Below, one piece after another: positions 1-23,746 of a stretch of 27,750 bases of DNA (the stretch's first letter is position 1; each line of letters begins with the position of its first letter). The stretch is from contig PWOD01000003.1 in NCBI GenBank assembly GCA_003557545.1, positions 1-27,750 of the forward strand. The letters run 5' to 3'. The position numbers were made by a program, and so were the translations under genes. The notes below the pieces were generated by a model. It worked only from the letters and a program-made list of their open reading frames with translations. It made no database searches and was not told where the DNA came from. This stretch comes from a bacterium. GTDB taxonomy: Bacteria > T1Sed10-126.

Positions 1-410
1 CGGCCGGGCAGGCTGATCCGGCACCACCCGTGGGACCCGCGTTAGGACAACACGGACTGAATATTATGGAGTTTTGTAATGCGTTTAACCAAAAAACTTC
101 TGACCAGGAACCGGGGATACTTATTCCGGTCGAAATAACAGTTTACAAGGATAGAAGTTATGATTTTATTACAAAAACACCGCCCGCCTCAGTTTTGCTT
201 AAACGAACTGCAGGTCTGGTAAAAGGGTCTGGAGAACCAAAGAAAAACAAGGTAGGAAAGATTTCCCGGCAACAATTACGGGAAATAGCAGAAAAAAAAC
301 TTCCCGATCTCAACGCTTATACGGTGGAGCAGGCAATCAAGATTATTTCTGGAACTGCCCGGAGCATGGGTATTGAGATTGAGGGTCAAAGAGCAGGTGG
401 AACTAAATGA
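1..410 (+). CDS. rplK: 50S ribosomal protein L11 (5' end cut by window)
   Basis: L11 forms the base of the L7/L12 stalk with L10 and binds the GTPase-associated region of 23S rRNA. The first complete codon is at position 3, and the frame reads [20 protein letters not shown], the classic L11 N-terminal signature with its proline-rich loop, followed by MEFCNAFN. About 20 N-terminal residues lie outside the window. The C-terminal rRNA-binding domain ([10 protein letters not shown], then [12 protein letters not shown]) is intact. The stop overlaps the rplA start in ATGA at 407-410, so translation is probably coupled. Nothing in the visible part is unusual. Confidence 0.97.
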
Positions 411-1111
411 CAACTCAGAGTCGAAGGTATAGAGAATTATCAGGCAAGGCACCGAAAAATTTAATGACAGATCTGGAAGAAGCAATCGCTGAGGTTTTAA
501 AACTGGCGACAGCCGATTTTGTTGAAACCATAGAATGTCATGTAAATTTGAATATCGATCCCCGGAAAGCCGATCAGCAATTGCGCAGTTCGATAGTTTT
601 GCCCGCCGGAACCGGCCAGGAGGTCAGTGTGATTGTATTTGCCCGGGGAGAAAAGCAGCGGGAAGCTGAAGAAGCAGGGGCTGACCGTGTGGGTGCCGAG
701 GATTTAATAGAGGAGGTTGAAAATGGTTGGCTCGATTTTGATGCTGCTATAGCAACCCCTGATATTATGGCTGATGTGGGAAAACTGGGTCCACAGCTTG
801 GACCCCGTGGATTGATGCCGAATAATAAAGCGGGAACAGTAACTTTCGATGTGGCTGAGACGGTGGAAAAGATCAAAGGTGGTCAGATCGAAATCCGTAA
901 TGATAGCTATGGAATCATACATACGCCGGTTGGAACCGATGAGATGACGCCGGCTGAACTATTGGAAAATCTAAAAACCGTACTCAGGTTTGTGGTGGCT
1001 GATAGACCTTCGGTTGTGGGACGCGGTCAATATATTAAATCTATTACTCTCGTCGCTTCCATGTCACCTGCCGTCGGGGTCGAACCCGCGGTGGCCTGGG
1101 AACTGGACTGA
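407..1111 (+). CDS. rplA: 50S ribosomal protein L1
   Basis: L1 forms the mobile stalk at the E site and in many bacteria represses its own operon. The protein has 234 residues, close to the family norm of about 230. The signature [14 protein letters not shown] lies at about residues 132-145. The N-terminal RNA-binding half and the C-terminal [17 protein letters not shown] segment match the two-domain fold. The ATG overlaps the rplK stop by 4 nt. An L1 autoregulatory site would normally lie upstream of rplK, outside this window, so regulation cannot be judged here. Confidence 0.97.
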
Positions 1112-1136: not shown

Positions 1137-1973
1137 ATGGTAGATGTTAGAAAGATAGAATGGGTAGAACAGCTGGAGGATATGATTAAACAGAACCGCT
1201 ATATGGTGTTGACCGGTTTTCAAGGTCTGTCGGTTGAGCAGCTGGAAAATCTGCGAGGTAGCCTTTATGAACTCGATTCGGAGTTTTGTGTGGTTAAAAA
1301 CCGGCTGGCAAAATTGGCTTTTGAACGGGCCGAAACAGCTGAATTAAAAACTGATGAGAAGGTTGCGGAAGAGGTTGAAACTGCAGTTCTTGAGCTGAAG
1401 TTAGCGGATCTGGATGGAGCTGGTCCGGCCAAGGTGAAAGCTCTCGAAGAGGCGGGTTTTAATGAAGTTGCTGACGTTGCGTTGGCGGCGGCTGAGGAGC
1501 TTCAGGAAATATCAGGTGTGGGCCCCGCACTGGCTGAGAAGTTAAAGGCAAGTGCTGACAGCCTGCTGAGTGAACAGCCGGTAGAACAATCTGGCGGAGA
1601 CCACCAAGTTGAAGAAACAGCAGATATTACCGCCGGCGAGGGTTCTCTTGCTGCAGCGGTCAGCACACACCTGCGTGGAAGTACAGCGATAGTCTTTACG
1701 AACAATGAGATCAGCCAGGTCGCCAGTATCCTGGTTAAATTTCGTGACAAAACAGAAATTCTTGAATTGAAGGCAGGTGTTATTGAGCAGGAACTGATCG
1801 ATTCTGAAAAACTTGAACGAATTGCTGAGTTACCACCACGCAAGCAGCTACTGACGGCTCTTGCTATTAGTCTTAATTCACCAATTCAGAAGCTGGCACG
1901 TTATCTTATCGATCCAATCTATAAGTTTGTTGATGTGTTAAATCAGGTAAAGAAAGAAAAAGAAAACCAATAA
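1137..1973 (+). CDS. rplJ: 50S ribosomal protein L10 with inserted helix-hairpin-helix domain
   Basis: L10 anchors L7/L12 dimers to the ribosome and binds 23S rRNA at the stalk base. The open frame extends upstream into rplA, but the ATG at 1137 follows AGGGAGG (1117-1123) and opens with MVDVRKIEWVEQL, a normal L10 start. The product has 278 residues against about 165-180 in the family. Residues 1-67 are the L10 start (TGFQGLSVEQL, CVVKNRLAKLAF). Residues 169-278 are the rest (GSTAIVF, LKAGVIEQELIDSEKLERIAELP, C-terminal L12-binding helix). Residues about 68-168 are extra: an acidic helix, two helix-hairpin-helix-like units (GAGP at 94-97, GVGP at 127-130), and an acidic linker. The frame is uninterrupted across both junctions, so a sequencing frameshift is unlikely. 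Identity as L10 is secure; the function of the insert is unknown. Confidence 0.95.
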   Translation: MVDVRKIEWVEQLEDMIKQNRYMVLTGFQGLSVEQLENLRGSLYELDSEFCVVKNRLAKLAFERAETAELKTDEKVAEEVETAVLELKLADLDGAGPAKVKALEEAGFNEVADVALAAAEELQEISGVGPALAEKLKASADSLLSEQPVEQSGGDHQVEETADITAGEGSLAAAVSTHLRGSTAIVFTNNEISQVASILVKFRDKTEILELKAGVIEQELIDSEKLERIAELPPRKQLLTALAISLNSPIQKLARYLIDPIYKFVDVLNQVKKEKENQ

Positions 1974-19588: not shown

Positions 19589-19792
19589 GTGGATATCGAG
19601 AAAATACGCCGGATGAATGATGAGGAACTAAGTGCGAAACTTGAGGAGCTGTATGAAGAAAAGGCTAATATTCGCATTCAATCAGCCCTGGCTCCCCTGG
19701 AAAATCCGATGCGAATTCAACATTTAAGAAGGACTGTGGCTAAAATTAAAACTGTTCAGACCGAGCGGGAGGCTGGATCTAATAATGACTGA
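19589..19792 (+). CDS. rpmC: 50S ribosomal protein L29
   Basis: L29 is a small helical-hairpin protein next to L23 at the tunnel exit. The GTG at 19589 gives 67 residues, the usual length, with [20 protein letters not shown] and [17 protein letters not shown]. The central RFQ-like motif of many homologues is replaced by [16 protein letters not shown], which is still in family range. The 3' end overlaps the rpsQ start by 8 nt. Confidence 0.95.
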
Positions 19793-20138
19793 AAAAAATC
19801 TTCAAATTGAAAAGAAACCAAAGCTTCGTACAGGGCTGGTCGTTTCAGATAAAATGGATAAAACAATTGTGGTTGAGATTAGTTATGTGCTCAATCATCC
19901 GCTGTACAAAAAACGTCTTCAGCGATCGAAAAAAGTTAAGGCACATGACGAACAGGAACTGGCTACCGCTGGAGATATGGTTTTGATTGAGGAAACTCGC
20001 CCTCTCGCTTCTACTAAGTGCTGGAGGTTGCTGGAAGTTATCGAGGAAAAACCTGAAATGGATGAGGATAAGATTAGCTCCTCTATGGATAGTCCAGAAG
20101 CGTTTGATAGTGAGGTTGAATCTGATGATACAGTCTGA
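19785..20138 (+). CDS. rpsQ: 30S ribosomal protein S17 with acidic C-terminal tail
   Basis: S17 is a primary 16S rRNA-binding protein of the OB-fold family. Residues 10-86 are the core ([53 protein letters not shown]). The protein has 117 residues against about 84 in E. coli. Residues 87-117 are an extra acidic tail with 13 Asp/Glu and 2 Lys. The tail runs into the next gene: the stop at 20136-20138 lies 14 nt inside rplN, and the tail's codons hold the rplN ribosome binding site. The family assignment is secure; the tail's role is unknown. Confidence 0.96.
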
Positions 20139-23089: not shown

Positions 23090-23746
23090 GTGGCTAAAAA
23101 AAATCAACTTGATGATAAAGTTATCTATATTAACCGGGTCTCGAAAGCGGTGGCAGGTGGTTCTACCTTCTCTTTCAGTACCATGGTCGCAGTTGGCGAC
23201 AATGATGGTTCTGTTGGAATCGGCATCGGACAGGCCGATGAGGTTGTCCCTTCCATTCAGAAGGGTAAGGCCGCCGCAGAAAAAAACATGATTAAGGTTC
23301 CACGGCTGAACACCACAATTCCTCATGAGATTGAGGCCAAACATGATGGAGCTCGTGTCTTTCTTAAACCGGCCCATCCTGGAACTGGAGTTATCGCCGG
23401 TGGTGCTGTTAGAGCAGTGGTTGAGCTGGCCGGTATTAATGACATTCTGAGTAAATCCCTGGGCTCCGATAATTCACTTAATATTGCCCGAGCCACCATT
23501 AAGGCTCTGCAAAATTTACGTGACCCCCATCTGGTAGCTAATTTACGGGGTAAAACACTTGATGAAATTTTGAGTGATAATCCTTACGGAGGTCCCGATA
23601 AGGCTCCGGAGGAAGAGAGTGAGCAGGAACCAGCAGATCCCGCCGATGAAGATGCTCCGGTTGAATCAACCGGGGATGAGGAGTCGGAAGATGCGGCGGA
23701 GCAGATTGATGATGAAGAAGAGGTGAGTCCAGTTGAAACTACATGA
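23090..23746 (+). CDS. rpsE: 30S ribosomal protein S5 with acidic C-terminal tail
   Basis: S5 lies at the mRNA entry channel and affects accuracy. The GTG at 23090 follows GGTAGGAGA and opens MAKKNQLDDKVIYINRVSKA. Residues 1-165 are the normal S5: VAGGSTFSFSTMVAVGD, KVPRLNTTIPHE, ARVFLKPAHPGTGVIAGGAVR and LAKSLGS-like LSKSLGSDNS. Residues 167-218 are an extra tail with 23 Asp/Glu among 52 residues and a single Lys. rpmD (L30) normally follows rpsE; here the tail occupies that interval and its end overlaps the rplO start by 14 nt. The tail is too acidic to be degenerate L30 in the same frame. Confidence 0.96.
   Translation: MAKKNQLDDKVIYINRVSKAVAGGSTFSFSTMVAVGDNDGSVGIGIGQADEVVPSIQKGKAAAEKNMIKVPRLNTTIPHEIEAKHDGARVFLKPAHPGTGVIAGGAVRAVVELAGINDILSKSLGSDNSLNIARATIKALQNLRDPHLVANLRGKTLDEILSDNPYGGPDKAPEEESEQEPADPADEDAPVESTGDEESEDAAEQIDDEEEVSPVETT

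What the first reader, a model, noticed from the sequence alone, without database searches (positions are those of the whole stretch)
1338..1640. Helix-hairpin-helix domain inserted inside ribosomal protein L10
Residues about 68-168 of L10 interrupt the N-terminal rRNA-binding domain between VVKNRLAKLAF and GSTAIVF, positions adjacent in ordinary L10. The insert has two similar units, LADLDGAGPAKVKALEEAG (89-107) and LQEISGVGPALAEKL (122-136), each with a GxGP hairpin, like the tandem helix-hairpin-helix of RadA/Rad51 N-termini. Such units usually bind the backbone of double-stranded DNA or RNA. Placed at the stalk base, the insert could contact 23S rRNA, an mRNA leader, or another factor. The frame is continuous and flanked by intact L10, so it is not an assembly fusion by appearance. 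Whether it has been described before could not be checked.
Basis: partly seen in the sequence, partly recalled or inferred. Interest (0 to 1): 0.82.

Follow-up and report, generated by a model that had tools for sequence, protein, structure and literature searches.

The report
Extra hairpin domain inside ribosomal L10
In a little-known salt-lake bacterial phylum, the ribosome-stalk protein L10 carries a whole extra protein module (a double helix-hairpin-helix domain on two loose acidic linkers) in its middle; both sequenced members have it and no other bacterium sampled does, so the ribosome's factor-binding region seems to have gained a new docking part.

Summary
The only L10 (uL10) gene of this genome (window 1137-1973, 278 aa) has its ~165-residue body split after residue 68 by about 108 residues: acidic linker, (HhH)2 domain of family HHH_5 (residues 88-146), second acidic linker. 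It is in frame, in the normal L11-L1-L10-L7/L12-rpoB-rpoC operon, and present at the same site in the one other held genome of the phylum (T1Sed10_126; 49% identity overall). Between the two, the HhH domain is as conserved (52%) as the L10 halves (58%, 51%), while the linkers are not (22%, 18%): a constrained, tethered domain, not an artefact. In none of 384 other bacterial genomes did a match span the insert. AlphaFold folds the domain alone well (pLDDT 86), like RadA's N-terminal domain and NusA's AR2. Closest sequences are the haloarchaeal eL32 N-terminal HhH and the NusA C-terminal HhH; its origin is unresolved. Function is inferred, not shown. New variant of a known kind.

The parts
1137..1340 (+). 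L10 N-terminal half (residues 1-68), rRNA-binding domain, first part
   Evidence: Pfam Ribosomal_L10 residues 5-76; B. subtilis L10 8-70; 58% identical to T1Sed10_126 over 1-66
1341..1397 (+). Insert: variable acidic linker 1 (residues 69-87)
   Evidence: No counterpart in other L10; residues 67-87 are 22% identical to the relative
1398..1574 (+). Insert: tandem helix-hairpin-helix domain (residues 88-146), hairpins GAGP 94-97 (1416-1427) and GVGP 127-130 (1515-1526)
   Evidence: HHH_5 E 2.7e-10; 52% identical to relative; AF2 pLDDT 86.4; RadA Z 11.8, NusA Z 9.8
1575..1646 (+). Insert: variable linker 2 (residues 147-170)
   Evidence: 18% identical to the relative, 7 gaps
1647..1970 (+). L10 second half (residues 171-278): remainder of the rRNA-binding domain and C-terminal L7/L12-binding helix; residues 171-176 are the junction with the insert
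   Evidence: NCBIfam L10 model 172-276; B. subtilis L10 74-151; 51% identical to relative
407..1111 (+). L1 gene, directly upstream (25-base gap to L10)
   Evidence: Translation; same gene order in L044
1987..2373 (+). L7/L12 gene, directly downstream
   Evidence: Translation; same gene order in L044

Best explanation
This is the working uL10 of the ribosome in a salt-lake bacterial phylum (T1Sed10-126, 'Ca. Busufiota'), into which a complete, acidic (HhH)2 domain was inserted at the loop between the KNRLAKLAFERAE helix and the LRGSTAIVF helix-strand. The domain hangs from the stalk base on two flexible acidic linkers and most likely acts as a protein-docking module that captures or positions a partner near the factor-binding centre (a translation factor, an assembly factor, or the transcription machinery), in the way that domain II of archaeal/eukaryotic uL10 and the AR2 domain of NusA dock proteins. 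Shown: insertion, frame, sole copy, conservation in the relative, predicted fold of the isolated domain, acidity. Inferred: flexible tethering, surface exposure, protein docking. The partner is unknown.
For: Sole L10 match in the genome and in the relative. Same-site insert at 49% identity in T1Sed10_126; HhH 52% identical against 22% and 18% in the linkers and 58%/51% in the L10 halves, so the domain is under selection as a unit. Isolated domain predicted at pLDDT 86 and superposes on RadA N-terminal HhH (Z 11.8, 2.3 A over 62), E. coli NusA 431-494 (Z 9.8, 2.1 A over 64) and AR2 in the SuhB complex (6ib8, Z 8.7). Net charge -7/-13 like the NusA HhH of the same genomes (-5/-10), unlike RuvA (+2/+3) and UvrC (+4/+7). 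NusA AR2 is a dual HhH that binds RNAP alphaCTD and SuhB (PMC6614801). Human uL10 domain II, also an insertion in this domain, binds GCN2 and contacts GTPases (PMC6421407). Both genomes encode an RNAP alphaCTD.
Against: No partner identified; charge is only a proxy for binding mode, and acidic HhH domains also occur in haloarchaeal RadA and HhH-methylase fusions. Only two sequences carry the insert. The full-length model failed (pLDDT 32), so the placement of the domain on the ribosome is unknown. Acidic tails on S5 and S17 in the same genomes suggest that part of the acidity may be general salt adaptation.
Confidence: 0.45

Rival explanations
1. Nucleic-acid contact: the HhH pair holds 23S rRNA near the stalk base, a tRNA, or the operon's mRNA for autoregulation.
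For: HhH domains of RadA, UvrC and RuvA type bind nucleic-acid backbones (established knowledge), and the fold matches RadA. Hairpin 1 keeps one conserved Lys (K99) in both genomes.
Against: Domain net charge -7/-13 versus +2 to +7 for RuvA/UvrC HhH in the same genomes; hairpin 2 is GVGPALAEKL with no Lys/Arg straight after the hairpin, versus GVGKKTARRL in RuvA; no L10 leader at Rfam's gathering score.
Confidence: 0.2
2. Salt adaptation or passive passenger: an acidic module accreted on a surface loop raises solvation of the ribosome in brine, or was fixed neutrally, without a specific partner.
For: Habitat is hypersaline soda-lake sediment (PMC11382960). The insert is very acidic (-18 and -22); S5 and S17 carry acidic tails in both genomes. 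The best sequence match outside bacteria is the HhH on a halophile ribosomal protein, eL32.
Against: The HhH core is as conserved as L10 itself while the acidic linkers are not; charge alone would not keep both hairpins. Most other ribosomal proteins in the window stay basic.
Confidence: 0.25
3. Assembly artefact or chimeric gene.
For: None found; both genomes are draft assemblies in many contigs.
Against: Two different species with diverged sequence have the same junctions, frame and operon; each HhH insert is by far the best match of the profile built from both.
Confidence: 0.01

Closest known systems
Archaeal/eukaryotic uL10 (P0) domain II, also called the BEAN insertion (PMC6421407, PMC11515920)
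   Same: A domain inserted into the rRNA-binding domain of uL10; a docking site in eukaryotes (binds GCN2, contacts GTPases).
   Different: Different domain (HHH_5, not BEAN) and different site: a profile of insert-free L10 runs collinearly through archaeal and yeast uL10 past our insert site and stops about 20-40 residues later, where domain II begins. Those papers state that domain II/BEAN is absent from bacterial uL10.
Haloarchaeal eL32 N-terminal HhH domain (NCBIfam PRK12766)
   Same: HHH_5 domain on a large-subunit ribosomal protein of a halophile; best non-L10 sequence match in the PDB (E 2.6e-9 and 8.2e-11) and among the best in NCBIfam (E 1.1e-9 and 2.6e-12); 41-52% identical in a core alignment.
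   Different: Different host protein, N-terminal extension rather than internal insertion, different domain of life.
NusA C-terminal HhH (AR1/AR2)
   Same: Same fold (Z 9.8), acidic, closest bacterial sequence relatives of the insert.
   Different: Part of a transcription factor; C-terminal. Descent of the insert from NusA is neither shown nor rejected (AU p 0.38).
RadA/Rad51 N-terminal HhH domain
   Same: Best fold match (Z 11.8); sequence E 3.9e-5 to Rad51.
   Different: Recombinase context.
NCBIfam PRK12278 L21 models (long L21)
   Same: Weak matches of the HhH region to these ribosomal-protein models (E 1e-4 to 2e-3).
   Different: C-terminal part of another ribosomal protein; similarity weak.

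Membership tests
Bacterial ribosomal protein uL10 | Matches L10 family models above curated cut-off | tested here: met
   PF00466 71.8 bits vs 22.8; NF000955 126 bits vs 85
Bacterial ribosomal protein uL10 | Encoded between L1 and L7/L12, single copy | tested here: met
   Gene order; one match in genome
HHH_5 (PF14520) tandem helix-hairpin-helix | Profile score over cut-off with two GxG hairpins | tested here: met
   41 bits vs 27; residues 88-140 match profile 3-55 of 57
HHH_5 (PF14520) tandem helix-hairpin-helix | Compact helical HhH fold | tested here: met
   AF2 of residues 82-149, pLDDT 86.4, helices 16-24, 30-35, 38-42, 49-64; RadA Z 11.8
Nucleic-acid-binding HhH | Basic face and basic residue after the hairpins | tested here: inconclusive
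   Net charge -7/-13; hairpin 2 without Lys/Arg after the GxG; a sequence proxy only
uL10 domain II (BEAN) | Inserted about 30 residues downstream, after the GxxAIVF strand and following helix | tested here: not met
   Collinear match through our insert site in archaeal/yeast uL10, ending at profile 88-96; our insert follows residue 68
eL32 N-terminal HhH (PRK12766) | HhH followed by an eL32 domain | tested here: not met
   HhH similar but the host protein is uL10
NusA AR2 | Binds RNAP alphaCTD | not testable with these tools
   alphaCTD is present in both genomes; binding needs experiment or a complex prediction

The most novel reading that the evidence does not exclude
The insert is an AR2-like dock at the base of the ribosomal stalk that binds RNA polymerase (alphaCTD) or a Nus-type factor, tying the leading ribosome to the polymerase, or that recruits a dedicated translation or stress factor as uL10 domain II does: a bacterial stalk that has independently gained a factor-recruiting domain.
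Probability: 0.12. Interest if true: 0.85.

Novelty: new variant of a known kind. Interest (0 to 1): 0.6.

Why it matters
Core ribosomal proteins of bacteria rarely gain whole internal domains. Insertions into uL10 were described as archaeal/eukaryotic and, with those in RNA polymerase, as a process that tapered off after early evolution (PMC11515920). A phylum-restricted HhH insertion in a bacterial uL10 is an exception, at the site that recruits translation GTPases. Together with the haloarchaeal eL32 HhH it points to repeated use of one module on ribosomes of halophiles, which can be tested.

Tried and rejected
Full-length AlphaFold with two sequences failed (pLDDT 32) and was not used. No L10 relatives in viral contigs to deepen the alignment. 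A haloarchaeal centre for genome searches was not accepted, so eL32 and other haloarchaeal HhH came only from the PDB, plasmids and viruses. Origin: tree weak (46/68) near eL32 plus Halococcus HhH; AU tests reject neither a NusA clade (p 0.38) nor an exclusive eL32 clade (p 0.10): unresolved. HhH on another ribosomal protein of G000: all other HHH_5 hits there look like RuvA, NusA, UvrC, PolX, ComEA-like, LigA, RecR or RecG by sequence; several G001 hits were not named. Rfam found no L10 leader. Literature searches found no report of an HhH in L10 or of the eL32 HhH; the library is open-access only. A phmmer run with a made-up L10 consensus was not used.

Full report
What is there. The window starts inside the L11 gene and runs L11-L1-L10-L7/L12-rpoB-rpoC and onward through the str/S10/spc ribosomal clusters (gene names outside L10, S5 and S17 read from the translated sequence). 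L10 is ORF 1137-1973, 278 aa, and the only L10 match in the 2.15-Mb genome. Both of its ends are ordinary L10. Against B. subtilis L10, residues 5-68 and 177-254 align to residues 8-70 and 74-151, so about 108 residues stand where B. subtilis has three. The insert contains an HHH_5 domain at residues 88-140 (E 2.7e-10; 8.3e-11 for the insert alone).

Not an artefact. The only other held genome of the same family, G001, has an L10 with the same architecture, 49% identical over its length. A scan of 84,980 species genomes returned just this relative, named T1Sed10_126 (PWHN01000050.1; same 96,065-base contig length as G001's contig). T1Sed10-126 is an uncultured phylum ('Ca. Busufiota'), listed with two genomes of 2.15-2.2 Mb from hypersaline soda-lake sediment (PMC11382960), which fits G000 and G001; that G000 belongs to it is inferred from shared family and size. 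Identity by segment: L10 N-half 58%, linker 1 22%, HhH 52%, linker 2 18%, L10 C-half 51%. This pattern is what a folded domain on two free linkers, kept by selection, would give.

How rare. A profile of the two proteins run over 386 genomes of the bacterial domain (about 260 families) spans the insert only in G000 and G001. In the 55 other L10 frames examined (some genomes are represented twice) the two halves join directly. A profile of the insert alone finds, besides the two L10 inserts, weaker matches in 385-700-residue frames; the five such frames read in full are NusA by their sequence. The genome-contig scan used only two short peptide patterns, so it is not an exhaustive exclusion.

Fold. 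The first AlphaFold run on the full protein failed for lack of sequences. Residues 82-149 with 19 relatives, mostly small haloviral HhH proteins fetched from IMG/VR, gave pLDDT 86.4. The model matches archaeal RadA N-terminal HhH (Z 11.8, rmsd 2.3 A over 62 residues), E. coli NusA 431-494 in the RNAP-NusA and coupled transcription-translation complexes (Z 9.8, 2.1 A over 64) and AR2 in complex with SuhB (6ib8, Z 8.7). For small helical domains such Z values show a fold class, not function.

Relatives of the domain. By sequence the best PDB matches are the N-terminal HhH of haloarchaeal eL32 (E 2.6e-9 for the window insert, 8.2e-11 for the relative's), ahead of Rad51/RadA; NCBIfam agrees (PRK12766 eL32, E 1.1e-9 and 2.6e-12). 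Conversely, the eL32 HhH searched against the 386 bacterial genomes hits the two L10 inserts first (57% and 44% identity, E 2.6e-13 and 4.3e-10; next 2.7e-8). Haloarchaeal plasmids and viruses carry many similar HhH modules fused to methylases, RNase H-like proteins and others. The NusA HhH of the same genomes shares an EGLQ motif with the relative's insert. Trees of 59 columns cannot decide between an eL32-like and a NusA-like source. Shared halophile composition may explain part of the eL32 similarity.

Binding mode. The HhH domain has net charge -7 (window) and -12 to -13 (relative), against +2/+3 for RuvA and +4/+7 for UvrC in the same genomes, and -5/-10 for NusA HhH. Hairpin 2 (GVGPALAEKL, GIGPAMAEKI) lacks the basic residues that follow the hairpin in RuvA (GVGKKTARRL). 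This argues for protein rather than nucleic-acid contact, as in NusA AR2, a dual HhH that binds alphaCTD or SuhB (PMC6614801). It is a proxy: many haloarchaeal HhH domains, including RadA's, are acidic too. No L10 leader was detected at Rfam's gathering score in either operon and the L1-L10 gap is 25 bases, so the mRNA-leader reading has no support; the window lacks the region upstream of L11.

Place on the ribosome. uL10 NTD insertions are known: domain II (BEAN) of archaeal/eukaryotic uL10, which extends toward the A site, binds GCN2 and contacts GTPases (PMC6421407; PMC11515920). A profile of insert-free L10 aligns collinearly with archaeal and yeast uL10 through our insertion site and ends where domain II begins, so this is a separate insertion at a different loop. 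Whether it points to the factor site, L11 or solvent could not be computed here.

Verdict. A true, phylum-specific domain insertion in a core ribosomal protein; fold right, nucleic-acid function doubtful. Best explanation: a tethered protein-docking module at the stalk base (0.45); salt adaptation/passenger 0.25; nucleic-acid binding 0.2. New variant of a known kind.

Noticed in passing
window 23090-23746 (S5) and 19785-20138 (S17): S5 has a ~50-residue Asp/Glu-rich C-terminal tail (whole-protein pI 4.5) and S17 an acidic C-tail; both tails also occur in T1Sed10_126 (L159, L160), so acidic add-ons to ribosomal proteins recur in this phylum.
   Followed up: partly
L130 601-753 and L132-L152: Haloarchaeal viruses commonly encode ~185-residue frames starting with a small acidic HhH domain; in HJTV-4 it is annotated as similar to ribosomal protein L32e.
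   Followed up: partly
L123, L127, L128: In haloarchaeal plasmids the same HhH module is fused to DNA methylases and RNase H-like proteins: a mobile module in halophiles.
   Followed up: no
L097 (G282): A bacterial ~200-residue frame begins with a basic HhH domain similar to the eL32 one, followed by a domain not identified.
   Followed up: no
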